A stretch of 64,000 nt of DNA from Streptococcaceae bacterium (lineage in GTDB: Bacteria > Bacillota > Bacilli > Lactobacillales > Streptococcaceae): NCBI GenBank assembly GCA_031269775.1, contig JAISYQ010000027.1:1-64000 (forward strand). Direction: 5' to 3'. Each line of letters starts with the position of its first letter. Position 1 is the stretch's first letter. The notes beneath the pieces were generated by a model. It ran no database searches and was not told where the DNA came from. It saw only the letters and a list, made by a program, of their open reading frames with translations. Below, piece by piece: positions 4,781-63,998 of the stretch. A program made the translations under genes and the position numbers.

Positions 4781-4839
4781 AGAAAGAATGGTAAGTTTTA
4801 TTTTCTTGAAATCTTTCAACAGAAAATGGCGGTAAAAAA

Positions 4840-22384: not shown

Positions 22385-22441
22385 AATAAGGAATTGCTGA
22401 TTTCTAAAAATTTCAAAAATAAGAACGAGAGGTACTCTTTA

Positions 22442-24134: not shown

Positions 24135-24142
24135 CGAAAAAA

Positions 24143-24196
24143 ATGTTTAATTCTTCATCCTTTTCGCCTGATTCACCTTCACCTGATAAAAACTAA
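24143..24196 (+). other. Tiny Ser/Pro/Asp-rich open frame
   Basis: A 17-aa frame, MFNSSSFSPDSPSPDKN, lies between the radical SAM gene and the ABC transporter gene. It has no ribosome binding site of its own. The composition is unlike the Lys/Ile-rich proteins around it. It could be a C-terminal extension of the maturase in a shifted frame, a peptide gene, or chance. Confidence 0.2.
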
Positions 24197-24214
24197 TTAA
24201 TGGAGGTGCTTATC

Positions 24215-40042: not shown

Positions 40043-40612
40043 ATGGCTTTTAATAACAAAAAGGATAAGGCAAAAGAGCCGTGGAAATTACAGATTTATG
40101 ATACGGAACAAGAAGCTTCTAATTCACGATTGGCGCAACGTAAAAAGAAAAGAGGGAATACGCTATTTATTCGCTTGCTAGTGATTTTATTAATTGTTAT
40201 TGTCTCTATTCCAACATTGTTTTATTTTTTAACGGTAGGAAAAAGTAGAAGCGATAATGTTAATGTTGCTAAGCCTTCTAGTACAAAAAAAGCTAAATCT
40301 AATACACGTATTAGCAGCAATACTAGTTCAAAAAATTCTTCACAGGTAAAGAATTTACAGACAACAACTTCTTCAGAAGAAGAAGATTTATCTTCAATGT
40401 CAAATGCTTCGACCAACAATTCAACAACTTCTTCTTCTAAAACACCTACACAGCAATATGAAACAGTAGAAGAAGGGGAAGGATTACAGCAAATTGCTCA
40501 AAGAGTAGGAATATCTGTTGAAATATTAGCAAAATTAAATGGAATTACACTTAATTTAGATGGTTCTTTTTATCCTGCGATTTATCCAGGGCAAGAACTT
40601 CGGATAAATTAA
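40043..40612 (+). CDS. LysM-domain membrane-anchored protein
   Basis: A 189-aa protein with a charged cytosolic N-terminus, one membrane helix (about residues 47-67, RLLVILLIVIVSIPTLFYFL), a long Ser/Thr/Lys-rich linker (about 75-140), and a C-terminal LysM domain (ETVEEGEGLQQIAQRVG to YPGQELRIN). LysM binds peptidoglycan, so it probably sits across the membrane with its end in the wall, as seen in the SAG1386/EF1546 type of LysM proteins. TAGGAGGTAAA precedes the ATG. It has its own promoter and terminator. Confidence 0.88.
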   Translation: MAFNNKKDKAKEPWKLQIYDTEQEASNSRLAQRKKKRGNTLFIRLLVILLIVIVSIPTLFYFLTVGKSRSDNVNVAKPSSTKKAKSNTRISSNTSSKNSSQVKNLQTTTSSEEEDLSSMSNASTNNSTTSSSKTPTQQYETVEEGEGLQQIAQRVGISVEILAKLNGITLNLDGSFYPAIYPGQELRIN

Positions 40613-40636
40613 CTTTTTATTTAAATAATGTTATTT

Positions 40637-40699
40637 TAAAGCCTGTTTAATATTTTTGGTAAAACAAATTCTCTACCAAAGAATTTAAGCAGGCTTTTA
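40637..40699 (+). terminator. Terminator of the LysM gene
   Basis: TAAAGCCTG-TTTAA pairs with TTAAGCAGGCTTT, with an inner TTGGTA/TACCAA stem, and is followed by T residues. It starts about 25 bases after the stop. Confidence 0.75.
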
Positions 40700-40703
40700 T
40701 ATT

Positions 40704-40863
40704 AGACCTCCTCGGAAACTAAATGTATGAGAATTTCGTTTTCTTTTTCCCTGATACATCGTCAAAAAGCCTCGAAATAAAACACGTATCTTTAAGTTTT
40801 TTTCCTTGTATCAAGAAAAAATTGAAACGAATTCTCCTTATACCCTAATTTCCGAGGAGGTCT
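40704..40863. repeat. Repeat B copy 2 (160 bp)
   Basis: AGACCTCCTCGGAAA at the left and TTTCCGAGGAGGTCT at the right, a perfect 15-base inverted repeat. ATT flanks it at 40701-40703 and 40864-40866. Non-coding inside. The right end supplies a GAGGAGG sequence on the plus strand 40 bases before cmk, but the spacing is too long to serve as its ribosome binding site. Confidence 0.88.
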
Positions 40864-40905
40864 ATTAAAAAAGTTAATCAGCTATATTGGGGAAGGTTAA
40901 ATGAA

Positions 40906-41580
40906 ATGAAAAAAATAAGTATTGCTATTGATGGACCAGCTTCATCTGGTAAAAGTACAGTTGCAAAGCTTTTGGCTAAAGACTATGGTTATATTTATAT
41001 TGATACAGGAGCTATGTATCGTGCTTTAACTTATATTGCGTTGAAAAAAAAAGTAGATATTAATAATGAAACAGCACTTGATAATTTATTGAAAAAATTA
41101 TCAATTACTTTTAAACAAGAAGAAAACGGCCAACGAATCTTTGTTAACAAAAAAGAAGTAACTAATGATATCCGCCTACCTAATGTAACAAATAATGTTT
41201 CAACTTTATCTGTTCATAAAAAAGTTCGAGCTACCATGGTGAAATTACAAAAAAATTATGGAAAGCATGACGGTCTCATAATGGATGGTCGAGATATTGG
41301 AACAGTTGTTTTGCCAAATGCACAAGTAAAAATTTTTTTAGTAGCTTCTGTTTTAGAACGTGCCAAACGGCGTTTTAAAGAGAATCAAAAAAAAGGAATT
41401 TTAACTGATTTTGATACGTTAAAAGAAGAAATAAAACAACGAGATTTTCTAGATTCTACTCGTAAAGTTTCGCCTCTCATGCAAGCTAAAGATGCCTCTT
41501 TACTCGATACAACAGGATTAAATATTGCTGAAGCAGTGGAGAGGATCAAAAAAATTGTTAATGAAAAAATAAATAATTAA
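40906..41580 (+). CDS. cmk: Cytidylate kinase
   Basis: Phosphorylates CMP and dCMP with ATP. The 224-aa protein has Walker A GPASSGKST (9-17), YIDTGAMYRALTY, and the nucleotide motif MDGRDIGTVVLPNA with TRKVSPLMQAKDA. GGGGAAGG lies upstream. In Firmicutes cmk and rpsA are commonly adjacent, as they are here. Confidence 0.95.
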   Translation: MKKISIAIDGPASSGKSTVAKLLAKDYGYIYIDTGAMYRALTYIALKKKVDINNETALDNLLKKLSITFKQEENGQRIFVNKKEVTNDIRLPNVTNNVSTLSVHKKVRATMVKLQKNYGKHDGLIMDGRDIGTVVLPNAQVKIFLVASVLERAKRRFKENQKKGILTDFDTLKEEIKQRDFLDSTRKVSPLMQAKDASLLDTTGLNIAEAVERIKKIVNEKINN

Positions 41581-41773
41581 AGTGATTAAAATTTTCTAAC
41601 TTAGAATATACTTTTAATTTTGAGTAAAATAGCATAAACTGTTAATGTTAATTGGAGGCTGTCTAATTGTAATTTTAGGATAGCTCCATAAGAGTGTTTG
41701 CTTATCTTTAAATTGATCATCCTAAAAAAGAATCGTAAACAAACTCTGAAATTGTTGTAGGAGGATTTTTGTT

Positions 41774-44009: not shown

Positions 44010-44357
44010 ATGGAATTCTCAGAAGAAAAAATGAATGAAATTTATGCACGTGTCATGCAAAAAGCAACGACAGATAAAGAATTTCGTCAAGATCTAATGA
44101 AGGATGTAAATAAAACGATCGAAAAATTAATTGGTGAAAAACTTCCAGAAGGAACGAACTTAAAAGTTATTGAAAGTGATCCTAATTATAATGCCACTTT
44201 TGTTTTACCTAATTTATCAACTAGTGAAATGGATTTAGATGTTTTAGATAATGTAGCAGGCGGAGTTTCTGGGCTTATAATTATTAGTGTTTGTGCTGTA
44301 GCTATTGGAGATGGTGGAGGAACCATTTGTGGAGCCGATATGGGTACAGGAAAATAA
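44010..44357 (+). CDS. NHLP-leader RiPP precursor 1
   Basis: A 115-aa precursor. The leader (1-85) is a nitrile-hydratase-like peptide: MNEIYARVMQKATTDKEFRQ, IEKLIGEKLPEG, NATFVLPNLS, and LDVLDNVAGG, the last two Gly being the cleavage site. The 30-aa core begins VSGLIIISVCAVAIGDGGG and ends TICGADMGTGK. The CGAD.G block recurs in the other cores. AAGGAGAGG precedes the ATG. Such leaders guide modification enzymes in proteusins; the enzymes lie directly downstream. No exporter with a C39 peptidase is seen at this locus. Confidence 0.9.
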   Translation: MEFSEEKMNEIYARVMQKATTDKEFRQDLMKDVNKTIEKLIGEKLPEGTNLKVIESDPNYNATFVLPNLSTSEMDLDVLDNVAGGVSGLIIISVCAVAIGDGGGTICGADMGTGK

Positions 44358-44445
44358 GATTTTGTTTACTTTTATGAAAGCGTTTGAATGAAAAATATCC
44401 ATGATCTTTATTAAATTCTAAATAAAATAGAAGGAATGTTTACAT

Positions 44446-45768
44446 ATGAAATGGTCACGATATAGTAAATTATTTAAATCCCAAAAAAATGGATGGCTAC
44501 TTTATAATTCAGCATCTAATGCATTTTTAACGCTTGAGGAAAAAGCAGTGTCTGTAATTCAAGAAATCATAAAATCTCCCAAAACTTATGATTTTAGCAA
44601 TGCGGTTAATTTATATTTTCAGCTAAGAATAAGTGGTTTTTTAGTGGAAGATACTAAAGATAATGATTTATTTAATATTCTTAAAATGCGTCGTTTATTA
44701 GTTGGCTATGCAACTGATACTTTAACTTTAACGATTGCTCCTACGAGAAAATGTAATTTTGCCTGCCCTTACTGTTATGAAACAAATCGTACCAAATCGA
44801 TGATGAATGACGAAACTATAGAGAATTTATTAAAATTTATAAAAATGCATAAACAAGCGCGCAGAGTTTTTTTTGTTTGGTATGGAGGAGAGCCATTACT
44901 TGCTTATAAGAAAATAAAACAAATTAATGCAAAGATTGAGGAATTAAAAATACCGTATTCAGCAAAAATGATTACTAATGGATATTGCTTAACATCTGAA
45001 ATTTGTGAGGAATTAAATGATCTACATATTTCAGATATTCAAATTACAATTGATGGTGATCGAAAAACGCATAACAGTAGACGTTTTCTAATTGGTGGAG
45101 GTAAAACTTTTGATCGAATTATAAATAATATTGACACTTTATTAAGGTCAAACTATAAAGGAATACTACATTTACGTGTTAATATCGATACGAGAAATAG
45201 TAAGCAGTTTGCCAATGTTTATCGTTTTATTCAGAGCAAATACGATGATGAAACTTTAAAACGCATTTATATCTACCCTGGTTTTGTTCATGGAAAAGAA
45301 ACAACCCCTGATATAGCTTGTTTCTTTGATTATGTAAAAAAAGGAGAATTTATCGCCAAATTAGCAAAAGAAGAAAAGATAAGCCCTTTACCGATTTTTC
45401 CTCAATCAAAATACACTGCTTGTACCTTAGTACAGCATAATTCTTATGTAGTAGGTCCAGATGGAGAACTTTATAAGTGTTGGCATGATGTTGGAGAAAA
45501 GGATAAGGTTATTGGAAATATTGCATTTAAAAACTGGAATATGGCTCTTATAGCAGAAGGTATGATCTCAGGAAACTATTTAGAAGATAAAAAGTGTGAA
45601 AAGTGTTTCTTTTTTCCTGTTTGTGATGGTGGTTGTCCAAAATTAAGAATGCTTAATAATCGCGATAAAAAAAGACGAGATCATTGTTCTTATTTTAAAA
45701 ATAATCTTGAAGAGTTATTGGAGATTTACTATGAACAAAAGCGTGATAAATCAACCGTCAAATCTTAA
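44446..45768 (+). CDS. Radical SAM-SPASM peptide maturase
   Basis: A 440-aa enzyme. Cys103, Cys107 and Cys110 (CNFACPYC) bind the radical SAM cluster. VWYGGEPLL is the SAM-binding GGE motif. The C-terminal SPASM domain has CTLVQHNSYVVGPDGELYKC and then CEKCFFFPVCDGGCPKLR, for extra Fe-S clusters. The N-terminal 90 residues look like a RiPP recognition element. It belongs with peptide maturases that form cross-links or thioethers; the reaction here cannot be told. It overlaps the next gene by 38 bases. Confidence 0.9.
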   Translation: MKWSRYSKLFKSQKNGWLLYNSASNAFLTLEEKAVSVIQEIIKSPKTYDFSNAVNLYFQLRISGFLVEDTKDNDLFNILKMRRLLVGYATDTLTLTIAPTRKCNFACPYCYETNRTKSMMNDETIENLLKFIKMHKQARRVFFVWYGGEPLLAYKKIKQINAKIEELKIPYSAKMITNGYCLTSEICEELNDLHISDIQITIDGDRKTHNSRRFLIGGGKTFDRIINNIDTLLRSNYKGILHLRVNIDTRNSKQFANVYRFIQSKYDDETLKRIYIYPGFVHGKETTPDIACFFDYVKKGEFIAKLAKEEKISPLPIFPQSKYTACTLVQHNSYVVGPDGELYKCWHDVGEKDKVIGNIAFKNWNMALIAEGMISGNYLEDKKCEKCFFFPVCDGGCPKLRMLNNRDKKRRDHCSYFKNNLEELLEIYYEQKRDKSTVKS

Positions 45769-47116
45769 TAAGAAAAAATTGAATTGGATTGATTTTAAAC
45801 GTCTAATTGAATTGATTAGCGTTGATTTGAAAAATTATAAATTATTTGAAAAAAATCCAGAAAAATTTTTAGTGGAATTTGCTCTAAATTTAGAGCCTTA
45901 CTCAGCAAAAGAAGCAGTAGATATTTATTTAAAAAAGAAAAAGGCGGTTGACAATCCTTATATTATGCAAGCTTATAAAATTATTCAGCCAATTTATGAT
46001 GATCTTTTTAAGCGAGTAGATATTTCAAATTTTACATTTCTCAAGTTTCAAAAATGGATCCAGCGTAAGAAAAAAGCTCTTGCTTGGGAGAGCAAAGAAG
46101 CTAGAAAAATATTATCTCATTTTAATGCTCCGGTAATGTTTGAATTAAACCAAGGATGTAGCAGTCAATGTGATTTTTGTTGTTTAAATACCCATCCGTT
46201 AACAAAGATTTATCCTTATACAAAGGAGAATAAAAAATTTTGGTTAGAAATATTAAAAATTACAAAAGAGGAAATCGGTAATGCTGCTAGTGTTGGCGCT
46301 TGTTATTTTGCAACAGAGCCACTAGATAATTTCGACTATGAAAAATTTATCGCTGATTTTTATCAAGTGTTTTATACTTTTCCACAAACAACAACAGTTA
46401 AAGGCGCAACAAATATTAAACGTATCAAACAATTAATGAATCAATTAGGTCTAGAAGAGTTGCAAAAAGCAAAATTGCGTTTTTCTATTGTGTCACAAGA
46501 GCAGTTAAAATTAATTTATCAAAATTATACAAAAAAGGAATTAGCTTATGTGGAACTCTTAATGAATAATAAAGAATCCATCCATCCTTATAGTGATTCT
46601 GGCCGAGCAAGAAATATTCATAAAAAAAGAGGAAAAAAGAATTTTGAAGCCGCACCTTCGGTTTGCTTAATAGGTTTTTTGGTTAATTTATGCAGTAAAA
46701 CAATTTCCTTGATCACTCCCAGAAAACCAAGTAATAATTATCCATTAGGAATGGAAATAATATCTTCAAAAAAATTTTTAACTCCTAAAGAGTATCGCCA
46801 TATTATACGAAAAACAATTAATATTTTTATGCCTTTTAAAATAAATAAAAATCATAAATTGCGTTTTCATTCAGGAATTTCTATACAATCTAAAGGAAAT
46901 ATAGTTACTTTTTTAGGAGAAAACATTAAACGATCGCTGTCTTTAAGTGCAGAATCTCAAACAGTGCTTAAAAAATTGCAAAAAGAGGTATGTTTAATTA
47001 AAAATATCTTTAAAGAAAAAAAATATTCAAACTTTTTACGCAAGAGTATTTTAAATAGATTACAACATTTATATGATTTAGGCTTTTTAGAAATTTTAGA
47101 AAGAGAGGAATATTAA
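45731..47116 (+). CDS. PoyD-type radical SAM RiPP epimerase
   Basis: A 461-aa enzyme. ATG 45731 has GGAG 8 bases upstream, so it starts inside the SPASM gene. Cys143, Cys147 and Cys150 (FELNQGCSSQCDFC) bind the cluster. The blocks YPYTKENKKFWLEIL, CYFATEPLDNFDYEKFI, FYTFPQTTTVKGA and LAYVELLMNNKES are those of the PoyD family (radical SAM RiPP maturation amino acid epimerase, TIGR04517 from memory). This family turns L residues into D residues in proteusin cores, as in polytheonamide. It has no SPASM domain, as expected for PoyD. The assignment is by motif recall. Confidence 0.82.
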   Translation: MNKSVINQPSNLNKKKLNWIDFKRLIELISVDLKNYKLFEKNPEKFLVEFALNLEPYSAKEAVDIYLKKKKAVDNPYIMQAYKIIQPIYDDLFKRVDISNFTFLKFQKWIQRKKKALAWESKEARKILSHFNAPVMFELNQGCSSQCDFCCLNTHPLTKIYPYTKENKKFWLEILKITKEEIGNAASVGACYFATEPLDNFDYEKFIADFYQVFYTFPQTTTVKGATNIKRIKQLMNQLGLEELQKAKLRFSIVSQEQLKLIYQNYTKKELAYVELLMNNKESIHPYSDSGRARNIHKKRGKKNFEAAPSVCLIGFLVNLCSKTISLITPRKPSNNYPLGMEIISSKKFLTPKEYRHIIRKTINIFMPFKINKNHKLRFHSGISIQSKGNIVTFLGENIKRSLSLSAESQTVLKKLQKEVCLIKNIFKEKKYSNFLRKSILNRLQHLYDLGFLEILEREEY

Positions 47117-47118
47117 AA

Positions 47119-47439
47119 ATGTCTTGGTCACAGGAAGAAATAAATGAAGTATATGAAAAAGCAATGCAAAAGGCAACAACAGATGAAGAGTTTCGCCAAG
47201 AATTATTAGATGATCCTAAATTGGCGATTGAAAAATTGACAGAAAAATCTTTACCTGATGATTATACGATAAAAGTTGTAGAAGATGTGGATCCAAATTA
47301 CACTGACCCCAATTACGCTGCAACATTTGTTTTACCTTCTTCTTCAGCAAAAGAACTTAATTTTAATGATTTAAACAATGTAGCCGGAGGAAATATTAAC
47401 GTTTGTGGCGCACAAGCAGGAAGTGTTACTAAAGAATGA
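47119..47439 (+). CDS. NHLP-leader RiPP precursor 2
   Basis: A 106-aa precursor with a 91-aa leader (INEVYEKAMQKATTDEEFRQ; IEKLTEKSLPDDY; AATFVLPSS; LNNVAGG) and a very short 15-aa core, NINVCGAQAGSVTKE. The core keeps the CG-x-x-x-G block of the other cores. The leader carries a small extra repeat, VDPNYTDPNY. It starts 3 bases after the epimerase gene; AGAGAGGAA lies upstream of the ATG. Confidence 0.9.
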   Translation: MSWSQEEINEVYEKAMQKATTDEEFRQELLDDPKLAIEKLTEKSLPDDYTIKVVEDVDPNYTDPNYAATFVLPSSSAKELNFNDLNNVAGGNINVCGAQAGSVTKE

Positions 47440-47620
47440 AGAATTTTTTTCTTAATTTGATCATTTACAACAAAATACACCTAGATATTTATAAGCAATT
47501 TTAATTTAGCGCTCAAAAATATATAGAAGAATTGATTAGTGAGTTATATTTTTTAATAAATAAATGGGAATAAGATTGACTAATACCAATTTTAAATATA
47601 AAAATTAGGAGGAATATATT

Positions 47621-47968
47621 ATGTCATGGACACAAGAAACAATCAATGAGGTTTACGCAAAGGTAATGCAAAAAGCAACAACGGATGAGGAATTTCGGGA
47701 GGAGTTATTAAATAATCCAAATAAAACTATTGAAAAACTTACCGGTGAAAAACTTCCTGATGATTTTAAAGTAAAGATACTGGAAAACGATCCAAATTAT
47801 ACCGCAACATTTGTTTTACCGAATATGCGTAGTACTGATCTAAACATTGATGATTTGGAAAATGTAGCTGGAGGTTTTGGTGGATGTACTGCTGAATTTG
47901 GAGAGATTGGTGATGTCAATGTCAATGCATGCGGTAATCAAGTAGGAGGAAACCAAACTAAACAATGA
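47621..47968 (+). CDS. NHLP-leader RiPP precursor 3
   Basis: A 115-aa precursor. The leader is 85 aa (INEVYAKVMQKATTDEEFRE; IEKLTGEKLPDDF; TATFVLPNM; LENVAGG). The 30-aa core starts FGGCTAEFGEIGDVNV and ends NACGNQVGGNQTKQ. It has two Cys, as core 1 does. AGGAGGAATAT precedes the ATG. It stands 180 bases after precursor 2, so it may have its own promoter. Confidence 0.9.
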   Translation: MSWTQETINEVYAKVMQKATTDEEFREELLNNPNKTIEKLTGEKLPDDFKVKILENDPNYTATFVLPNMRSTDLNIDDLENVAGGFGGCTAEFGEIGDVNVNACGNQVGGNQTKQ

Positions 47969-54345: not shown

Positions 54346-55068
54346 TCAGATATTTCTTTTTAAAACACTAATAAAGCTGAACCCCCCAAAAAAGATCAAA
54401 ATAATTCTACTGATTATAAAAATTAAACTTAATTTAAAATCAACTTCACCACTTAAACCTAAAGGCAAAATAAAAGGTTCATGATTGATAAATCCTTTTG
54501 CAAAAATGTCTAAAAAGGGGGACATTTCAATTTTTAAAAAAGATAAGATAAGTACAATTGGCATAAATGTATAAAGCCAAGTTATTTTTTTAGACCCTAA
54601 AAATAAACCAATGCCAAACACAAAAATAAAACTTGGCAGTAAAATGAGAAGTAGCGGCAAGATGAAATGAGAAAAATTTGTAAAGCGAAAAGTAAATACA
54701 TAAAAGCCCATACTGATCAAAATAAACACCGATGTAATCAAAAAATACGCAGCAAAAATCGAAGAAATTTTTAAAACAAAATATTTTGCGTAAGAAATTG
54801 GTGTAGATAAGGTGATTTCTTTTACTAAAGTCTCGTTTTTTGTAAATAACATAGTGATAAAAAACATCAAAACCAGCAACAAAAATGGCTGTACTTCACA
54901 TAAAAAGCAAGAAAAACTCCACTGTGAAAAAGGGGCTGTATAGCCTACGCCTTTAATGATTTTGGTATTTAAAACATATATAGAAAAAAATGCTGCTACA
55001 ATCAAAGTAATGATAAAAAATTTAGAAAATGCAAGCCGTTTTAATTCATATCGAAAGATTTTAAACAT
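54346..55068 (-). CDS. ABC-2 type permease of the Clo7bot-like locus
   Basis: A 240-aa membrane protein with six hydrophobic segments and an N-terminal FRYELKRLAFSKFF typical of ABC-2 permeases. Its start overlaps the preceding gene by 28 bases, and GGAGGTG lies in that gene 8 bases upstream, so the two are translationally coupled. Last gene of the locus. With the ATPase and the larger permease it probably makes an export or immunity complex. Confidence 0.82.
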   Translation of the reverse strand: MFKIFRYELKRLAFSKFFIITLIVAAFFSIYVLNTKIIKGVGYTAPFSQWSFSCFLCEVQPFLLLVLMFFITMLFTKNETLVKEITLSTPISYAKYFVLKISSIFAAYFLITSVFILISMGFYVFTFRFTNFSHFILPLLLILLPSFIFVFGIGLFLGSKKITWLYTFMPIVLILSFLKIEMSPFLDIFAKGFINHEPFILPLGLSGEVDFKLSLIFIISRIILIFFGGFSFISVLKRNI

Positions 55069-57401
55069 TGAACAACACCTCCGTCTTCTATCGTAATTTC
55101 CATTTCATTTAAAAAATCAGCAAAAGTTAGGGTTTGATCTGGATGATTGTGATATTTTTGATAAATATTCTTAAGTTTCTTTGAAAAATTTTTAGCTCCG
55201 ACACTCTCTTCAATTTTGTAAATTTCAAATGGAGCGAGCTTATGAATTTTAGCTCTTTTAACATCAATGGTTACAGGCCATTTTTGTAAACTTGACATCT
55301 TTGTTAAATATTTGGGATTTCTCTGATAAAAACCTCTTTTTACAAGCTTTGCTCCTTCTCTCCATTCAAAACTCTCTACCCCTCCTTTTCGTTCATTATT
55401 TAAAAATAAATCATCAGCAATTTTTTTGCCGAATCTATTTTTTATAAAAGAATAAGCAGAAAATTCAATCAAAGCTTCATAAGTCCATTCAGAATGTTTT
55501 TGATTAATTTCTATTTCCTTTTTTGGACGAATAATATCTGGTACTTCTTGATTAGAGATATTAACATTTTGCCACCAGAAATTAGCAAGAGATGCAGCTA
55601 AAATCTGAAGTGTTTGAGCGTGATTTAGCACTTTATTTTTAGTCACTTCATTCACCATAAGAATACCCTCACTTTGAGTGACAAGATTAGAATAATTAAA
55701 ACTATTCACCCCAGAAACACCTGAAGTAATAACGATTTTTAATGGCCTAACTCCTTGGTTAAGTGGCCCCATTTGATGAAAGAAAAATTGAAACATGGCT
55801 TTTATATCCTCAGCTTTTGTAATGTAATTCTCTTTATCTTCATAAGGATAAAAAAATTCGATATTTGAGCCTTCTTCAGTTTTATATTGTATTTTCCCAA
55901 AATTTGCAGCACACAAATAACAATCCTCTGCTTGATCGTCTGCAAAACTCCATTTAAAAGTGCCATCTTTACTTTCTGCAATCTTTTTATTTTCTTGACC
56001 TGTACTAACAACGTTTAAAGGAGCATCCAAACTAATCTCACCCTCTATTTTATTATTTGGTTTATTTACTAAAATTTGTGGTAAAAATTTTGTTTTAATA
56101 TAAGAAACATACCTACTTGAAACACCTGAAGTAAAATCTTTAACAATACTTAAATTTTTTGGCGATCCACCATAAGAAAATTCCAAGTTACTTATCCTTT
56201 TTTTAGGCAGCTGAACTTCTAATAAACTATAGGCATAGGCACGAGTTAAGGCAGAATTTTGCTCAGCAAATTTAATTCTTATAGGTTTGTGATTAAGGTT
56301 GATATAGTCAATTTTATATCCAGGTGAAATCAATATATATAGTGTTTGCTTACTAAAAGTTTGATTTTCCAAATCTTGTTTGAAAATAACAGAAGTTCTC
56401 TGAGCTTTTGTATCAATCATCATTTTCATTTTTGCAGTAGAAACTGTTTTTAAATTTTTGTTAATAAAGGGATCAAAATCATTATTTGCCATTAAGTTAA
56501 CAGTATCTATCAAAGAGATTTTTTTAGATAATGGTTCATGAGTAAAACTAAATACAGGTAAAAAAATGATGAAAAGAAGACTTATGGTTAGCAATTTATA
56601 CTTTTTTCCATTATAAAAAGCAGATTTTAATAATCCTTTTTGGTAACTCCTTGTACCTAAAAGACCAAATAAAAAGATGCTAAAAGAAAGACCAAAGCTA
56701 AACAATCGATTCCAAAAAAGAGCTGTTAAAATTTGTGTATTTCCAAAAAAATTTGAAACTCCTGTTACTGGAGATTGCACCCAACTGTATAGATAGGAAC
56801 ACATAGTTCCAACACTAAAACTTGCCAAAAAGAGAAAAAGCATTGCAATAATTGATAAATTAACACTTTTTGTTAAAAAATAAATCCCTGAACTTAGCAA
56901 AATGCAAAATACAATAGCAGTAAACATAATGCCAAAAAAACTGATAAAGTATAAATCCAGCTGATTAACCTCGTGCATTTTTATCAAAAAATACGGCATA
57001 AAAAGAAAAGAAGCAAGACTTGTTGCTATAAATCCTGTCAAACAAAGACTTATTGTTTGGAAAATATGATGTTTTATTGGACTGACGACAACATAAACGA
57101 CTTCTTCAATCCTTTCTCTTGAAATTTTATCTAATTCATAAAGCGTTAAAATACAGAAAAAAACTACCCCACATAAAGCTCCCATTTTGGTAGGAGTAAG
57201 TAAGGCAGTCGATAATTTTGTATAGCCTGGAAATATTAAAAAAATTAGAGAATTGGTATTATTTTTTGCAAAGATACTTAAAAAAGGAGCAAGGCAACTC
57301 AACATTAAAATAATCTGAGTTATTTTAGAACTACAAAGTCTTTTAACTTCATCAATTAATGAAGAGTAAAAATTTTTGAAAAATCTTTTTTGTAACATCA
57401 T
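55041..57401 (-). CDS. ABC permease fused to a degenerate M1-peptidase-like domain
   Basis: A 786-aa protein; the start at 57401 is set by AAGGGAGTG 8-9 bases upstream. Residues about 1-290 hold six membrane segments of ABC-2 type. A soluble domain follows and ends with QTLQILAASLANFWWQN and then EALIEFSAYSFIKN. In M1 aminopeptidases these positions read HExxH...WW and NEGFA. Here the zinc ligands of HExxH are gone (AASLAN), so the domain should not be catalytic. Permease-M1 fusions are known in ABC operons of this kind. Role: probably peptide binding or export. The similarity is read by eye. Confidence 0.7.
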   Translation of the reverse strand: MMLQKRFFKNFYSSLIDEVKRLCSSKITQIILMLSCLAPFLSIFAKNNTNSLIFLIFPGYTKLSTALLTPTKMGALCGVVFFCILTLYELDKISRERIEEVVYVVVSPIKHHIFQTISLCLTGFIATSLASFLFMPYFLIKMHEVNQLDLYFISFFGIMFTAIVFCILLSSGIYFLTKSVNLSIIAMLFLFLASFSVGTMCSYLYSWVQSPVTGVSNFFGNTQILTALFWNRLFSFGLSFSIFLFGLLGTRSYQKGLLKSAFYNGKKYKLLTISLLFIIFLPVFSFTHEPLSKKISLIDTVNLMANNDFDPFINKNLKTVSTAKMKMMIDTKAQRTSVIFKQDLENQTFSKQTLYILISPGYKIDYINLNHKPIRIKFAEQNSALTRAYAYSLLEVQLPKKRISNLEFSYGGSPKNLSIVKDFTSGVSSRYVSYIKTKFLPQILVNKPNNKIEGEISLDAPLNVVSTGQENKKIAESKDGTFKWSFADDQAEDCYLCAANFGKIQYKTEEGSNIEFFYPYEDKENYITKAEDIKAMFQFFFHQMGPLNQGVRPLKIVITSGVSGVNSFNYSNLVTQSEGILMVNEVTKNKVLNHAQTLQILAASLANFWWQNVNISNQEVPDIIRPKKEIEINQKHSEWTYEALIEFSAYSFIKNRFGKKIADDLFLNNERKGGVESFEWREGAKLVKRGFYQRNPKYLTKMSSLQKWPVTIDVKRAKIHKLAPFEIYKIEESVGAKNFSKKLKNIYQKYHNHPDQTLTFADFLNEMEITIEDGGVVQCLKSFDMN

Positions 57402-57420
57402 AATATGAAACACTCCCTTT

Positions 57421-58293
57421 CTACGAATATTTTGCAATCACATATGTGTAAGCATCTTCTAATGTTGGTTCAACCAGTGAAATTGAACTTTCTATTTTCT
57501 CGGCAATAACTCGGCACGAAACGCCCATCTTTGTAAATAATTTCGATGTAGATTTGTATCTATTGCCAATTTTTTTCATTATATCTCTATCTTCTTTTTC
57601 TTCAACTAGCCCCACATGTCCATTTGCTAATTGGATAAGTTCTGGTGAAGTCCCATCAAAGAGAATTTTACCCTCATTGATCACGATAATTCTCCTGCAC
57701 ACTGCTTGAATATCATCAATAATATGAGTTGATAAAAGAACAATTTTATCATGGGCCATTTTTGAAAAAATATTTCGAAATCTAATTCTTTCCTCTGGAT
57801 CAAGGCCTACCGTTGGCTCATCCAGAATAATTAATTCTGAATCTCCTAAAAGTGCTTGAGCAATTCCCACTCGTTGACGCTGCCCTCCAGAAAGATTTCT
57901 TATTTTTTCTTTTCGCTTCTTTTGTAAATTGACTTGTTCGATAACTTGATTAATATTTTCTTTTGCATTTTTTCCTAATTCTTTTAGCGATGCCATATAA
58001 TCTAAAAATTGATAAACGCTCAATTCATCATATAGTCCAAAATTTTGAGGTAAATATCCTAATTTTTTTTTCATTTCCTTTTCATAGTTAAAAAGAGGAA
58101 CATCGTTTACTTTAATTTCTCCAGAAGTAGGGAAAATTCTTGAAACTAATACCTTCATAAAGGTGCTTTTCCCCGCGCCATTTGGACCTAATAATCCCAC
58201 AAAATTAGGACTCTTTAACTCTACATTGATTTTTTGTAATGCTTTTTTCTTCCTATTGTAGGTAACACTTAAATCTTTAATACTGACCTTCAC
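57421..58293 (-). CDS. ABC transporter ATP-binding protein of the Clo7bot-like locus
   Basis: A 290-aa cytosolic ATPase: Walker A GPNGAGKST, Q-loop YLPQNFGLYDEL, signature LSGGQRQRVGIAQALL, Walker B LIILDEPTVGLDP, and the switch His in LLSTHIIDDI. GTG start with AAGGAG upstream. It sits between the protease and the permease genes, 16 and 19 bases from them, so this is one operon. Confidence 0.92.
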   Translation of the reverse strand: MKVSIKDLSVTYNRKKKALQKINVELKSPNFVGLLGPNGAGKSTFMKVLVSRIFPTSGEIKVNDVPLFNYEKEMKKKLGYLPQNFGLYDELSVYQFLDYMASLKELGKNAKENINQVIEQVNLQKKRKEKIRNLSGGQRQRVGIAQALLGDSELIILDEPTVGLDPEERIRFRNIFSKMAHDKIVLLSTHIIDDIQAVCRRIIVINEGKILFDGTSPELIQLANGHVGLVEEKEDRDIMKKIGNRYKSTSKLFTKMGVSCRVIAEKIESSISLVEPTLEDAYTYVIAKYS

Positions 58294-58309
58294 AGCTATT
58301 TCTCCTTTT

Positions 58310-59980
58310 TTATGTAAGACTTTCCAAAATCTTTTGATAAAGTTGATTCTTTTTTACTTCACCAATAGTAAAAATATCTTCTTTAAAAATTTTTTTTAAA
58401 TCATTGAATCTTAATTGATAATTTTTAAAATCCATTTGATATGTTTGAATTCCATCTTCTGCCTCTAGTGTTGAATGATCAAAAGTATTGTAAGAAGGTA
58501 CAAGAAAGATAAATTTCACTCCAAAATTTCGAAATTTTTGCAAAGTAAATTCCAACTCTTTAAGATTGACTTCACAATGAATACATAAAACGACCACATC
58601 GACTTTTGTTGCATGTAGATAAGACTCATTTAGCTTCCCAAAAGTTTGTTTATTTTGGTTGTTAATGAAAGAAATCCCGCCTCCTACATTGATAACAAAG
58701 ACATCAATCTTTTCATAAGCTTCTACACGATTCATATAATAGTTAATTGAGCCTACAATATCTGGAAAAATAACTTGCTTAGGATAATAAAAAACATCAA
58801 ATCCATAAATTACTCCCTCAGGATTGTAAGTAAGCGCTTTTGGATTCAATTCATCTATAGCAAAATTAGACACTAAGTTTTTCTGAATTTCAAATTTATG
58901 ACTATTCCTTCCTAAACTTAAAATTAAAAGAACCGGTTTTTCAAGGGAAGACAAATCATCATTTTTAAACTCCTCATGTGAGTATAGAAGATTATCAGAC
59001 ATTTGCTTAATCTTGCCAAGAAAGATCCATTCATAATTGGGAAATCGTTTTTTGATATTATCTGAGATCGCTATTTCTTGCAAAGTGGTATTGATAACAA
59101 CAATTACATCAAAAGTAGTATCCTCTTCTTTCAAAGTACCAAAACGATAAAATTTTTGATCTTTAAAATCCCAATAGGAAGTAACATTCTTAAGTTTCAA
59201 AAAATTGCTTATTTCTGAAATTTTTTTAGGTGGCAATAAAACCACCGCTAATTTTTTATCCTTGATCCTTTCTCCAATTTTCTTAGGAATTGGTTTAATA
59301 GATTTAATGAATTCTGATGCTTCATCAATTTGGAGTCCAAAATTTTTCTTCAATAAAATAAATTTATCAAAAATAGGAGTATCATTTAATAATTTTGCCA
59401 ATACTCCTGAAAAATAAGCACAAGCCAAACTGGTAGAAGAAAAATCAAATTCAAATCCATTCTCTTTTTGAATATGTTCTTCTAAACGGATAGAAACAGT
59501 TGTTTCATCAATTCTCTTAATTTTATTCTTTTGCTTTTGATTCACTATTACTCTTACCACATTTTTAAACTCAGCAGGGTAAGAAATATTGTTGGAATGA
59601 GAGCCTGCCGAAATAATTGCAACATTATTTAAAACAGCCTCCTGACAAACTTCAAAAAGCAAAGAAGAGTAATTGTTTATACCTAAACTAATGTTAACGA
59701 TATCTGCTCGTTCTTCTATTGCTTTTTTAATGCTTAAGATCAAACCCTTCATGGATAAGTTCCCGTTGCGATCTGTAATATTGAAATCTAAAATATCAAA
59801 AGGTATATCTACTTGCCTTAAAATTTCCTTTAAACACTCATCTCCATGCAAGTCATTAGAAATTTTATATTTTTCAATGACCTTTTCATTTTTTAAAAAA
59901 AAATGTTTGATGTTGACGTGATGATTAGAGATTATATTTTTATTCACACCTGTATCAATAAGTGCAATCTTTATAGTCAT
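58310..59980 (-). CDS. S8 (subtilisin-like) protease fused to a TIGR04066-like peptide maturation domain
   Basis: A 556-aa protein without a signal peptide, so cytosolic. The first about 230 residues form a compact subtilase with the triad Asp9 (IALIDTGV), His45 (DLHGD) and Ser184 (SSTSLACAYFSG). The usual oxyanion Asn of the AAGN motif is replaced (SAGSHS). The rest (about 240-556) resembles the TIGR04066 peptide maturation protein: LLILSLGRNSHKFEIQKNLV, EGVIYGFDVFYYP, and DVFVINVGGGI. In Clo7bot-type loci these parts are usually separate genes, as I recall. It probably cuts the leader after modification. The C-terminal match is from memory. Confidence 0.72.
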   Translation of the reverse strand: MTIKIALIDTGVNKNIISNHHVNIKHFFLKNEKVIEKYKISNDLHGDECLKEILRQVDIPFDILDFNITDRNGNLSMKGLILSIKKAIEERADIVNISLGINNYSSLLFEVCQEAVLNNVAIISAGSHSNNISYPAEFKNVVRVIVNQKQKNKIKRIDETTVSIRLEEHIQKENGFEFDFSSTSLACAYFSGVLAKLLNDTPIFDKFILLKKNFGLQIDEASEFIKSIKPIPKKIGERIKDKKLAVVLLPPKKISEISNFLKLKNVTSYWDFKDQKFYRFGTLKEEDTTFDVIVVINTTLQEIAISDNIKKRFPNYEWIFLGKIKQMSDNLLYSHEEFKNDDLSSLEKPVLLILSLGRNSHKFEIQKNLVSNFAIDELNPKALTYNPEGVIYGFDVFYYPKQVIFPDIVGSINYYMNRVEAYEKIDVFVINVGGGISFINNQNKQTFGKLNESYLHATKVDVVVLCIHCEVNLKELEFTLQKFRNFGVKFIFLVPSYNTFDHSTLEAEDGIQTYQMDFKNYQLRFNDLKKIFKEDIFTIGEVKKNQLYQKILESLT

Positions 59981-59999
59981 AAATTTACCTACTATTTCC

Positions 60000-61340
60000 T
60001 TAATTAATGGATAAATTCTCTAGATAGTTAACAAGTTCTTTATTCGGTCTAATTTTTTCTAGATAATATATTAAATTCTGTTCCACTTGATTTTGAGCCT
60101 TAATACAAAAATCATCTGTGAGATCAAAGATATCTTTAAAACATAACTGACAAAATTTAGCTGCCCAACAAGATTTACACTTTTGTGTTTTTTCTAAAGT
60201 TTTCTTTAAAAGCTTTCTTATTTTTTTTACATCCAATCCTTCAAACACATTTCCTAAACAAAAAACCTCTTCCTTTTCATTTACTCTCTCACAAATAATA
60301 ATTTTTCCCGAAGGCATCACAAAATTTTTTCTAATGCCAGGAGTACAAAATCCACCTGGAAAAATGTCCAATGCATATTCATTATTAAGCAAAGCTTTAT
60401 GGAATTTAACTGCATCATTTAAAACGGACTGATAAACAAAAAAATATTGTTCTGGGTTAAAACGAAAAGGTTTTTCAGTTTTTTCTTTTTTTAAAAATTC
60501 TAAAAAAAATTTTGTTGGACTGACATCGATTAACATCACATTAGATTTACACAGTTTGGCCAAATAATCGTATTGCTTTTTATTCCCCGTAACTGAAGTT
60601 ACAACACTATTGAAAATCACATGTGTTTTAAAAAATTTTGGATCTTTTTTATAAAACTTCACTACATTTTCAAAAACTTTATTAAAAGAAGGGGAATCAG
60701 ATTTATCTAGTCTAAATTTATCATGAATCTCTTTAGAACCGTCCAAGCTAATCGTCAAATGAAAATTGTGATCAATTAAATACGTTGAAATTTCTTCATT
60801 TCCAAGAAGCATAGCATTTGTTGTAATATAAAAAATAGGCATACGAAAAGGATAATTTTCTTTCCAATACTCTACGCATTCTTTGATTAAATTAAACTTT
60901 AATAAAGGTTCTCCTCCATAAAATCCCAAGTGTAGCAAATCACTTTCATGTGAATTTGTTGCTAAAAGATCAATTGCTTTAAAAGCGATATTTCTAGGCA
61001 TTTCTTTGAGTTTATATTCTTGATTAGTATATTTTGACATGTAACCGCAATATTTGCATCTAAGATTACATTGCTCAGTAAGTGCTAAGGTTAAACTTGA
61101 TATCCTATTGTTTACTAACCATTGAAATTCATCATACGTATAATAATGCCTGAAATTAAATTTCACAGGGTTATCAATATTTCGACATAAACTGCCTTTT
61201 AAAAATTTTTCACACTCTCCTGTAAAAAGACCTTGCTCTAATAAATCAAAAATTTTTGGGGAAATTTCAATTAAATCGCTATTAACAGCATCATAAAGAT
61301 AATTTCCCATTTTTGTTTTCAATGTTTTACATAAATACAA
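60000..61340 (-). CDS. Radical SAM-SPASM peptide maturase (CcpM-like)
   Basis: A 446-aa enzyme starting at TTG 61340 with GAGGAAG upstream. Cys91, Cys95 and Cys98 (CNLRCKYC) bind the SAM cluster; GFYGGEPLL is the GGE motif; the SPASM end reads CKSCWAAKFCQLCF plus one more Cys (DDFCIKAQ). The first 70 residues look like a peptide-recognition part (NYLYDAVNSDLIEIS). With the S8/TIGR04066 partner it fits the CcpM-type maturases of Cys-rich peptides. Its substrates should be the Cys-containing peptides upstream. Confidence 0.88.
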   Translation of the reverse strand: MYLCKTLKTKMGNYLYDAVNSDLIEISPKIFDLLEQGLFTGECEKFLKGSLCRNIDNPVKFNFRHYYTYDEFQWLVNNRISSLTLALTEQCNLRCKYCGYMSKYTNQEYKLKEMPRNIAFKAIDLLATNSHESDLLHLGFYGGEPLLKFNLIKECVEYWKENYPFRMPIFYITTNAMLLGNEEISTYLIDHNFHLTISLDGSKEIHDKFRLDKSDSPSFNKVFENVVKFYKKDPKFFKTHVIFNSVVTSVTGNKKQYDYLAKLCKSNVMLIDVSPTKFFLEFLKKEKTEKPFRFNPEQYFFVYQSVLNDAVKFHKALLNNEYALDIFPGGFCTPGIRKNFVMPSGKIIICERVNEKEEVFCLGNVFEGLDVKKIRKLLKKTLEKTQKCKSCWAAKFCQLCFKDIFDLTDDFCIKAQNQVEQNLIYYLEKIRPNKELVNYLENLSIN

Positions 61341-61448
61341 AAATTCTTCCTCTTTTTCCTCTATATTTTAAGAAAATTTTTCTATCGTACAATAAAAATA
61401 TTACTCAATTAAAATTAAAAGTACTTGCGCAATTAAGTTAATTAACTT

Positions 61449-61544
61449 TTAGTATAAACCTTTCCTTACAGCAATAAGTGCATGAAGCTGGTATCCACAA
61501 TAGCATCCAAGTGCTTTAAGTCTAGCTTTCTTAATTTTTAACAT
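61449..61544 (-). pseudogene. Leader-truncated second precursor peptide
   Basis: A 31-aa frame: MLKIKKARLKALGCYCGYQL, then HALIAVRKGLY. It matches the intact precursor (61787-61942) in LKxLGCxCG and in LxAxxKG, but it lacks the first about 18 residues of the leader, the third Cys, and the tail after GLY. No ribosome binding site precedes the ATG, and repeat A begins 41 bases upstream. It is best read as a paralogue that lost its 5' end. Translation from the ATG is still possible. Confidence 0.6.
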
Positions 61545-61587
61545 AAAAAAATCATTTTACGTCGCTGATTTTTGAAAATGCCTCTAA

Positions 61588-61753
61588 GAGCCTGTTAACC
61601 TTTTTCTCTATTGATGAATTTTTTGAGAAATTTTTACGTTAAAAGCGTAATCTTTTAGGTAATGGATAAAATAAACCGAACTAAAGTAAGTTTTCACACC
61701 CCAGACAAAAAATTACCGAAAAATTTACAATTATTGAGATCGTTAACAGGCTC
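61588..61753. repeat. Repeat A copy (166 bp) between the two precursor genes, with TAA duplication
   Basis: GAGCCTGTTAAC and GTTAACAGGCTC ends, perfect over 12 bases. TAA at 61585-61587 and 61754-61756 is the target duplication. It is the only copy outside the 18-31 kb island. Confidence 0.9.
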
Positions 61754-61786
61754 TAAAAAAGTCAACAACAATTTTACCAATTTCCC

Positions 61787-61942
61787 TTACTTTAATTGAC
61801 TTACAGTATAACCTTTTCCTATTGCAAGAAACGTCTTAAGTGCGCAACCACAATGGCATCCAAGTGTTTTAAGGCTATCATTTTTATTGAGAGTATTGAC
61901 TTTTTTTAGTTTTATTTTTGCCTTTTGCTTGTTTTTCATCAT
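61787..61942 (-). CDS. Cys-rich RiPP precursor of the Clo7bot-like locus
   Basis: A 51-aa peptide with a very basic leader (MMKNKQKAKIKLKKVNTLNK) and a core region LKTLGCHCGCALKTF ending in LAIGKGYTVSQLK. Three Cys in a CxCxC pattern. AGGAGG lies 5-6 bases before the ATG. It is the first gene of a minus-strand operon with the radical SAM maturase, the S8 protease and ABC genes. The three Cys are likely targets for thioether formation, but this is inferred from context. It was too short for ordinary gene callers to be sure. Confidence 0.82.
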   Translation of the reverse strand: MMKNKQKAKIKLKKVNTLNKNDSLKTLGCHCGCALKTFLAIGKGYTVSQLK

Positions 61943-62051: not shown

Positions 62052-62080
62052 ATGTTATCATTTTCTTCAATTTTTGTCAA
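62052..62080 (-). promoter_or_regulatory. Promoter of the Clo7bot-like operon
   Basis: On the minus strand TTGACA, 17 bases, TAACAT. It lies about 110 bases upstream of the precursor start and is the only good match in this 265-base gap. Confidence 0.55.
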
Positions 62081-62207: not shown

Positions 62208-63998
62208 TTAATCTACAGAAACATATTTTTCTGCTTGCAGTGTGTACATTTCATAATATTTTCCCCCAAGATGCATCAATTTTTTGTGTGTTCCTAGCTC
62301 AACAATTTCTCCTTGATCAAATAAAACGATTATATCTGCAAGTTTTGCACTACACATTCTGTGTGAGATTATGATTAGTATTTTGTTTTTTCCACCCTCT
62401 TTAAAAATTTTGAAAAATTCTTCTTCTGTTTTAGGATCTAAAGAAGCTGTTGGCTCATCTAAAATTAAAATAGGAGCATCAGAAAACAGAGTTCTTGATA
62501 TTGCTAATTTTTGCCACTGTCCGATCGAAGGTTCTATCGCATCTTCATAAAAATCCTTACCCAAATTCGTATCATATCCGTATTTATATGTTTGAATAAA
62601 TTCATTTGATCGCGTTTTTTTAGCAATTTTTTTGATATGAGTAAGGTTATCAATGTTATTGATGTCCCCAAATCCTATATTTTTTTTAACATTCATCAAG
62701 TAACAAAGATAATCTTGAAAACAAACACCAAATAATTTTTTATAATCCGCTGGATTGTAATTTTTTATATTCACTCCATTAAGGAAAATTTTTCCGTTTA
62801 ATGGCTTATAAATGCCTAATAATAGTTTTACAAAAGTTGATTTTCCACTTCCATTCTCGCCAACAAGGCATAATTTTTCACAAGTTTTAAATTTTAAATT
62901 TACATTTTTCAAAGCATAATTATTAGCCCCTGGATATTTAAAGGAAACATCGACAAATTCTACAGTACTCACAATTTGAGAAATTAAAACCTTTTTTGGA
63001 CTTTCAACGATTTCTTCTTTTATTTCTAAAAAATTGAATAAATAATTTAAAAACAACATACTTTTATTATTGGAAGCTACTAAGTCAACTAACGCTAATA
63101 AGCCCATTTCAAAAGAAACAATTGCTGTATTGTAAAGAATAAATTTAGATACAGAAACTAGCCCAAAAATAATTGCTTTAATAAGCCAATACATGACAAC
63201 TCCAACCCCAAAAATTGCAAAAAAATAAGTCAATATTATATATATTGTTTCTTCTCGAGCAATTTTTATATTTCCTTTGAAAAAATTTTCAAAAGAGTTT
63301 TTCCGTATCTTTTTTAGATAATCAAAAAGGTTAAAAATTCTTATTTCTTTGGCGTATTTAGGCGTAGAAATTAATGAAAAATAATACCAAATTTGTCTTA
63401 ATTGCATTGTTTTACTTATTAAATATTTATAAAGTTTGCCACCAGTTTTTTGTTTATAGTATAGTACCGGCAAAGCAAATACGACTAATAAGAATAAAGC
63501 AGATGCTTTCCATTTCATCAATATCACCATATAACCAACAGAAGAAATCGTTGTCGAAACGACACTAAACAGACTCTCCATTATATTAAGAGGTTCATAG
63601 CTTGCCTGATCTAGAGCATTTTTATAGGAATCTAAAAAAATCGGTGTATCCATTATTTCTTGGTTTATTTTTTGAAATTTACCTGCAATCATAGTTTCAA
63701 TGTTATGTGATAATTTATAACCTGTTATTTGACAAACAATCTTTTTAATATTTTCTGCAGAAAAATTAAGGACAATACCAAAAAGCATAATTATTAAGAT
63801 AAAAAATAAATGATTATAAGCATCTTGTGTTATAACTTCATTATTATGCTTATGTTCAAGAATTTTTATGATCTCAAAAGTTGTATAGGTTGTAATAATT
63901 GGACTTATTCCATTAATAATCATTGTTCCCAATGAGAAAAATAGGACCCAAGGTCCTGCTTTAAAAATTTCTTTAAATATAAAAGTTATTTTAAACAA
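62208..63998 (-). CDS. ABC exporter (fused membrane and ATPase domains), probably partial at the window edge
   Basis: At least 596 aa. The N-terminal about 330 residues hold five or six membrane helices. The ATPase domain has GENGSGKST, the signature SIGQWQKLAISRTL (an altered LSGGQ), LILDEPTASLDP and a switch His in IISHRM. The frame starts at a TTG two bases from the window end, and no ribosome binding site can be seen, so the true start may lie outside. A C39 leader-peptidase domain cannot be excluded upstream. It is co-directional with the operon and is a good candidate exporter. Confidence 0.85.
   Translation of the reverse strand: MFKITFIFKEIFKAGPWVLFFSLGTMIINGISPIITTYTTFEIIKILEHKHNNEVITQDAYNHLFFILIIMLFGIVLNFSAENIKKIVCQITGYKLSHNIETMIAGKFQKINQEIMDTPIFLDSYKNALDQASYEPLNIMESLFSVVSTTISSVGYMVILMKWKASALFLLVVFALPVLYYKQKTGGKLYKYLISKTMQLRQIWYYFSLISTPKYAKEIRIFNLFDYLKKIRKNSFENFFKGNIKIAREETIYIILTYFFAIFGVGVVMYWLIKAIIFGLVSVSKFILYNTAIVSFEMGLLALVDLVASNNKSMLFLNYLFNFLEIKEEIVESPKKVLISQIVSTVEFVDVSFKYPGANNYALKNVNLKFKTCEKLCLVGENGSGKSTFVKLLLGIYKPLNGKIFLNGVNIKNYNPADYKKLFGVCFQDYLCYLMNVKKNIGFGDINNIDNLTHIKKIAKKTRSNEFIQTYKYGYDTNLGKDFYEDAIEPSIGQWQKLAISRTLFSDAPILILDEPTASLDPKTEEEFFKIFKEGGKNKILIIISHRMCSAKLADIIVLFDQGEIVELGTHKKLMHLGGKYYEMYTLQAEKYVSVD

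What the first reader, a model, noticed from the sequence alone, without database searches (positions are those of the whole stretch)
54346..61942. Clo7bot-like Cys-rich peptide locus with a 51-aa three-Cys precursor
A minus-strand operon has a small peptide (LGCHCGCALKTF core), a SPASM radical SAM maturase, an S8 protease with a TIGR04066-like part, and an ABC-2 type exporter. Clo7bot-type systems are known in Clostridia. Here the precursor is simpler (CxCxC, three Cys) than the classic Cys-rich ones and the host looks like a lactic-acid bacterium. The product could be a new small thioether peptide.
Basis: partly seen in the sequence, partly recalled or inferred. Interest (0 to 1): 0.8.

Follow-up and report, generated by a model that had tools for sequence, protein, structure and literature searches.

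The report
Lachnocin-type modified-peptide cassette in lactic-acid bacterium
A lactic-acid-type bacterium (its closest relative with this locus comes from a termite gut) carries a gene set that makes, chemically cross-links, trims and exports a small three-cysteine peptide; it belongs with a little-studied peptide family already named 'lachnocin' in clostridia, so it is a divergent relative of something catalogued, not a new kind of system.

Summary
The label 'Clo7bot' is wrong. The maturase is closest to the lachnocin radical SAM maturase (507 bits, cut-off 550), far ahead of CcpM (275), and the Clo7bot maturase model is not among its 25 best matches. Seven named genomes (one same-genus Lactobacillales MAG, six clostridia) carry the same cassette: a one-piece ABC exporter, one to three CHCGC precursors, the maturase, and a subtilisin-like protease fused to a TIGR04066-like part. 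A second, decayed precursor copy follows the first, with a 168-bp dispersed repeat between them. The likely product is a short peptide with up to three thioether links (-6 Da), trimmed in the cytoplasm and exported, perhaps a bacteriocin. Chemistry and activity are inferred. No paper in the library held here uses the name lachnocin. A divergent variant of a catalogued kind, of moderate interest.

The parts
62208..63998 (-). One-piece ABC exporter (membrane part + ATPase, 603 aa; its first codons lie just beyond the window end)
   Evidence: 46-53% identical to the ABC transporter in the same cassette in all seven related loci; full frame MKNQKTYL... on the genome contig.
62052..62080 (-). Promoter-like site TTGACA-17-TAACAT with TG before the second hexamer
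   Evidence: Consensus scan, 10 of 12 matches; consensus only, and the number of sites in the region is little above shuffles (8 against 5.7, sd 2.2).
61787..61942 (-). Precursor peptide, 51 aa; leader about 1-28, core from C29 (CHCGCALKTFLAIGKGYTVSQLK)
   Evidence: NF038169 lachnocin, 45.6 bits, cut-off 40; aligned with 15 other precursors. Shine-Dalgarno-like AAAGGAGGG upstream.
61587..61754 (.). 168-bp MITE-like repeat with 13-bp terminal inverted repeats (AGAGCCTGTTAAC), lying between the two precursor copies
   Evidence: Perfect inverted arms; 19 matches, itself included, in the own genome.
61449..61544 (-). Degenerate second precursor copy (MLKIKKARLKALGCYCGYQLHALIAVRKGLY): two Cys left, leader box lost, frame shifted near the end
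   Evidence: 73% DNA identity to 61810-61886; three-frame translation; no NCBIfam match.
60000..61340 (-). Radical SAM/SPASM maturase, 446 aa (start TTG)
   Evidence: NF038170 507 bits, full length, cut-off 550 not reached; CX3CX2C at C91/C95/C98 and the C-terminal cysteines C332, C350, C388, C391, C397, C400, C412 invariant in 8 sequences; nearest solved structure CteB 5wgg, E 6e-31.
58310..59980 (-). Leader protease: subtilisin-like S8 domain (about 1-205) fused to a TIGR04066-like part (about 324-555)
   Evidence: Asp9, His45 and Ser184 invariant in 8 sequences; the predicted N-terminal domain matches subtilisins, VIA Z 18.7.
57421..58293 (-). ABC ATPase of an accessory ABC-2-type transporter
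   Evidence: ABC_tran, 117.6 bits; 16 bp behind the protease.
55041..57437 (-). ABC-2-like membrane protein, 798 aa, with a long non-membrane C-terminal region
   Evidence: No family match of note; homologue in genus-mate G003 on another contig, none in eight clostridial genomes.
54346..55068 (-). ABC-2-like membrane protein, 240 aa
   Evidence: 67% identical homologue in G003 and a 77% identical fragment in G001; none in the other relatives searched.

Best explanation
This is a lachnocin-type radical SAM peptide (RiPP) cassette. The 51-aa precursor has a leader with a conserved recognition box (L-K-K-V-N-x-x-N ... V/L-[K/R]-T-L) and a core beginning CHCGC. The leader docks on the maturase, and the radical SAM/SPASM enzyme, with its auxiliary iron-sulfur clusters, joins the three Cys sulfurs to carbons of residues further along, giving a small bridged peptide about 6 Da lighter. 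The register of conserved residues suggests a nested hairpin: C33 to A40, C31 to G42, C29 to G44 (sums all 73). The cytoplasmic S8 protease, fused to a TIGR04066-like part, then removes the leader, and the conserved one-piece ABC transporter, which has no peptidase domain, exports the product. Shown: gene content, homology, synteny, conserved motifs and catalytic residues. Inferred: docking, thioether chemistry and linkage pattern, order of steps, export, and a bacteriocin-like role; the ABC-2 trio may be immunity or an unrelated neighbour.
For: Precursor over the NF038169 cut-off, and maturase full length to NF038170 with no other family near. The same exporter, precursor, maturase and protease set is found in seven other named genomes, one Lactobacillales and six clostridia. 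Leader residues K13, K14, N16, N19, T26, L27 and core A40 are invariant; C29, H30, C31, C33 are invariant wherever the core is present, and G44 is kept in 15 of 16. The nearest solved maturase is CteB, a thioether-forming enzyme. The S8 domain is closest in NCBIfam to QhpE, which cuts the leader off a thioether-crosslinked peptide in the cytoplasm before ABC export (PMC7876137). A cluster with CcpM-type maturase, TIGR04066 protein, subtilisin-like protease and ABC transporter made an exported antibacterial peptide when moved into B. subtilis (SacP23, PMC10731318).
Against: The maturase lies below the curated cut-off of NF038170 (507 against 550), as does its genus-mate (481). No chemistry or activity is measured. 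The predicted maturase model is poor (pLDDT 55), so leader docking is not modelled. The hairpin register rests on two conserved columns and could be chance. No known immunity family was recognised.
Confidence: 0.8

Rival explanations
1. The product is a ranthipeptide: the Cys are joined to beta or gamma carbons of nearby residues instead of alpha carbons across a hairpin.
For: The nearest solved maturase is CteB, and the PapB ranthipeptide model is among the matches (159 bits).
Against: The RumMC sactipeptide model scores as high (175 bits). The core has no Asp or Glu for PapB-type Cys-to-Asp/Glu links, and conserved A40 and G44 suit alpha-carbon links (inference).
Confidence: 0.35
2. The cassette in this genome is decaying: the only intact precursor is divergent, a MITE-like repeat lies between precursor and maturase, and the second precursor is broken, so little product is made.
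For: Degenerate second copy and 168-bp repeat; the core lacks Gly35, Gly47 and Phe49, which most relatives have.
Against: Precursor, maturase, protease and exporter are all open, with conserved catalytic residues; the leader box and the CHCGC are intact.
Confidence: 0.15
3. A Clo7bot-type system.
For: Shared general plan: a Cys-containing small peptide beside a radical SAM/SPASM enzyme.
Against: TIGR04334 is not among the 25 best models for the maturase; the peptide matches only the lachnocin model well.
Confidence: 0.02
4. The peptide is not a bacteriocin but a signal or a metal-binding peptide; the CHCGC stretch binds metal unmodified or partly modified.
For: CHCGC could bind metal, by general knowledge; no immunity gene is recognised.
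Against: A relative of thioether-making enzymes, a leader protease and an exporter are present in every locus studied.
Confidence: 0.15

Closest known systems
Lachnocin family (NCBIfam NF038169 peptide, NF038170 maturase)
   Same: Precursor over the cut-off; maturase best and full-length match; same cassette and CHCGC core as in Lachnospiraceae and Clostridium genomes.
   Different: Maturase below the equivalog cut-off; host in Lactobacillales; core lacks several commonly kept residues; degenerate second copy; ABC-2 genes next to it.
CcpM / CLI_3235-type systems (TIGR04068, TIGR04066, TIGR04069), e.g. SacP23 of Paenibacillus polymyxa and the Roseburia intestinalis cluster
   Same: CcpM is the second-best maturase model; a TIGR04066-like part, a subtilisin-like protease and an ABC transporter are shared (PMC10731318, PMC4573289).
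   Different: There the protease and TIGR04066 are separate genes and TIGR04069 is present; here protease and TIGR04066-like part are one protein and no frame is left for TIGR04069; maturase 275 bits against cut-off 500; no CLI_3235-type peptide.
QhpD/QhpE/QhpF maturation of quinohemoprotein amine dehydrogenase gamma subunit
   Same: Same logic: radical SAM thioether maker, cytoplasmic S8 leader protease, ABC efflux (PMC7876137).
   Different: QhpE model 86 bits against cut-off 165; the target there is an enzyme subunit.
Ruminococcin C / RumMC sactipeptides
   Same: Related maturase (175 bits); Cys-to-carbon links expected.
   Different: Cut-off 720 not approached; no sactipeptide precursor model matches the peptide.
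Clo7bot (maturase TIGR04334)
   Same: Only the general idea of a radical SAM peptide.
   Different: Not among the best 25 matches.

Membership tests
Lachnocin peptide NF038169 | Whole-protein score over the curated cut-off (40 bits) | tested here: met
   45.6 bits; G003 orthologue 62.8 bits.
Lachnocin maturase NF038170 | Best family and full-length match | tested here: met
   507 bits over 1-439 of 440; next CcpM 275.
Lachnocin maturase NF038170 | Score over the curated equivalog cut-off (550 bits) | tested here: not met
   507.2 bits; G003 481 bits. A divergent sister branch in the tree.
Lachnocin cassette | Precursor next to the maturase with exporter and S8/TIGR04066 protease (as seen in the six clostridial loci) | tested here: met
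Clo7bot | Maturase matching TIGR04334 | tested here: not met
   Not in the best 25 models of the window maturase, i.e. under about 48 bits against a cut-off of 600.
CcpM / CLI_3235 system | Maturase over TIGR04068 cut-off (500) | tested here: not met
   274.8 bits.
CcpM / CLI_3235 system | TIGR04066 protein over cut-off (200) | tested here: not met
   62.9 bits, over the C-terminal part only.
QhpE protease | Score over NF049966 cut-off (165) | tested here: not met
   86.1 bits.
Peptidase S8 (Pfam PF00082) | Gathering score and Asp/His/Ser catalytic residues | tested here: met
   31.7 bits, gathering 21.8; D9, H45, S184 invariant; subtilisin fold.
Sactipeptide or ranthipeptide class | Thioether from Cys sulfur to alpha (or beta/gamma) carbon | not testable with these tools
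   Needs mass spectrometry and NMR.

The most novel reading that the evidence does not exclude
Lachnocins are an uncharacterised class of very small sactipeptides whose CxCxC strand is stapled to an A-x-x-x-G strand as a three-rung thioether ladder, trimmed by a two-part S8/TIGR04066 protease, and have passed between clostridia and reduced-genome gut Lactobacillales.
Probability: 0.25. Interest if true: 0.6.

Novelty: new variant of a known kind. Interest (0 to 1): 0.36.

Why it matters
The lachnocin family has curated models, but I found no paper under that name in the library held here, so its chemistry and role look open. This locus gives a short precursor, a divergent maturase, and alignments of 16 precursors and 8 cassettes that fix the leader box, the core and candidate link positions, so the chemistry is directly testable. 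It also extends the family from clostridia to a Lactobacillales genus that includes a termite-gut MAG.

Tried and rejected
Clo7bot label: rejected by family scores. ABC-2 trio as the conserved exporter: rejected as a core part, as no homologue of its 798-aa protein was found in eight clostridial lachnocin genomes; in G003 it lies on another contig and in G001 a fragment sits beside housekeeping genes, so its link to the peptide is undecided. A terminator between precursor and maturase: none found in the window; G003 has a 13-bp stem there, and clostridial loci vary. Recent transfer by base composition: cluster GC 28% against window 31%, third-position GC like the housekeeping genes, so no signal. 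Known fold for the TIGR04066-like part: sequence search against solved structures and Pfam gave only weak hits, best CTP synthase N-terminus at E 0.016 for the window protein; the structure searches were filled by the protease domain, so this stays open. MITE-like repeat in plasmids: no match. Literature searches for 'lachnocin' and 'Clo7bot' returned nothing.

Full report
Observation. The minus-strand genes are present as described. The peptide frame 61787-61942 is preceded by AAAGGAGGG and ATG, and the maturase, protease, ATPase and the two ABC-2-like proteins follow; from the maturase on, the gaps are 19 and 16 bp and then overlaps. A promoter-like TTGACA-17-TAACAT lies at 62080-62052.

What it is. 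The peptide scores 45.6 bits to NCBIfam lachnocin NF038169, whose cut-off is 40. The maturase scores 507 bits over its full length to the lachnocin maturase NF038170 (cut-off 550), 275 to CcpM (cut-off 500) and 175 to RumMC; the Clo7bot maturase TIGR04334 is not in the top 25. So the family is lachnocin, and the maturase is a divergent branch just under the equivalog cut-off. The same holds for the only genus-mate in which the cassette was found (481 bits).

Related loci. One scan of species genomes with the two Lactobacillales maturases found seven named loci: a Lactobacillales MAG, isolate Gsp477_bin117 (the Gsp477 code is a Glyptotermes termite in PMC11707648), and six clostridia of Lachnospiraceae and Clostridium. 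All have one to three precursors with CHCGC or CHCTC, the maturase (43-51% identical), the S8/TIGR04066 fusion protein (36-46%) and a one-piece ABC exporter (46-53%). The exporter lies upstream of the precursor in the clostridia and in the window (62208 to about 64020), and downstream of the protease in the MAG. It is the conserved exporter; the ABC-2 trio is not, as its 798-aa protein has no homologue in eight clostridial lachnocin genomes. Genus-mate G003 has homologues of both ABC-2 membrane proteins on another contig, and G001 a fragment, so the trio is a genus-level accessory of unsettled role.

How rare. Over the family cut-off: 1 of 398 genomes drawn across the own phylum, 1 of 395 in the order, 2 of 5 in the genus (three of these assemblies are 58-88% complete), and 3 of 397 in the family of Clostridium sp. 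12(A). A Paraclostridium sordellii plasmid carries an annotated lachnocin maturase and peptide, so the cassette can travel on plasmids. The two Lactobacillales maturases group together (88/87) beside a clostridial group (98/98) on long branches, which fits an old acquisition or long divergence; base composition gives no sign of a recent one.

Anatomy of the precursor. In 16 distinct precursors K13, K14, N16, N19, T26, L27 and A40 are invariant (window numbering); C29, H30, C31 and C33 are invariant in the 15 that have the core; G44 is kept in 15 of 16 and position 45 is Tyr or Phe. One Clostridium weizhouense copy lacks exactly the CHCGC block with two flanking residues (L024:4211-4324). The Cys and the conserved residues fit a hairpin register: 33+40 = 31+42 = 29+44 = 73. 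From general knowledge, subtilosin A and thurincin H have such constant-sum nested links. The register here rests on two conserved columns and is an inference.

The protease. The N-terminal domain is a subtilisin by sequence and predicted fold, with Asp9, His45 and Ser184 invariant and no obvious signal peptide, so it is probably cytoplasmic. Its closest curated model is QhpE, 86 bits, under that cut-off. QhpE cuts the leader from a thioether-crosslinked peptide in the cytoplasm before ABC efflux, and acts once (PMC7876137). The C-terminal part resembles TIGR04066 (63 bits). In the SacP23 and Roseburia clusters TIGR04066 and the subtilisin-like protease are separate genes (PMC10731318, PMC4573289), whereas in all eight lachnocin loci studied here they are one protein.

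The second precursor. A 77-bp stretch at 61457-61533 is 73% identical to the precursor core region. It reads LGCYCGYQLHALIAVRKGLY, with the leader box and third Cys gone and the frame shifted near the end. Between the copies lies a 168-bp element with 13-bp terminal inverted repeats that recurs through the genome (19 matches). Three of the six clostridial loci have two or three precursors in tandem, so this looks like a decayed tandem copy.

Verdict. A real, conserved, correctly spotted radical SAM peptide cassette with the wrong family label. It is a divergent lachnocin-type locus in an unusual host. The chemistry, the linkage pattern and the antibacterial role are inferred and testable.

Noticed in passing
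window 44010-47968 (+): A second peptide locus: three NHLP-like precursor frames (two scanned: 59 and 58 bits, cut-off 50.9), a radical SAM/SPASM enzyme 44446-45768 nearest to the Clo7bot maturase TIGR04334 (211 bits, cut-off 600), and a PoyD-like epimerase 45707-47116 (310 bits, cut-off 325). In a reduced-genome Lactobacillales this proteusin-like set is unusual.
   Followed up: partly
window 61587-61754; own genome C4, C30, C1, C9, C13 and others: 168-bp MITE-like repeat with 13-bp terminal inverted repeats, 19 full or partial matches of 70-100% identity in the genome; a transposase frame (IS5-like by eye) lies beside a copy on C4 (L069:7335-8045).
   Followed up: partly
L069 (own genome C4:22000-34000), 4698-6236 (-) and the 73-aa frame just after it (L020:1210-1431): RumMC-like maturase (474 bits, cut-off 720) next to a 73-aa Cys-rich peptide like the Apre_1838 sactipeptide family (33.4 bits, cut-off 45), with ABC transporter genes.
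   Followed up: partly
window 22394-25889 (+): A radical SAM/SPASM gene split over two overlapping frames (23041-23865, 23799-24134), followed by ABC transporter frames; possibly a broken peptide maturation locus. Genus-mate G001 has a near-identical N-terminal stretch (L065).
   Followed up: no
L024:4211-4324: A natural Clostridium weizhouense precursor with leader and tail intact but the seven residues CHCGCHG missing, as if cut out in frame.
   Followed up: no
window 55041-57437, residues about 615-645: The long C-terminal region of the 798-aa membrane protein has ...QILAASLANFWWQ..., which by eye recalls an M1 aminopeptidase zinc site with its zinc ligands replaced; no family model supports this.
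   Followed up: no
G003 contig C46 (L067:4648-9346): A further radical SAM/SPASM gene followed by a membrane protein, an ABC ATPase and an ABC exporter in the genus-mate: this genus seems rich in peptide maturation loci.
   Followed up: no
plasmid NZ_CP080292.1, about 40227-41767: Lachnocin maturase and peptide annotated on a Paraclostridium sordellii plasmid: evidence that the cassette is mobile.
   Followed up: partly
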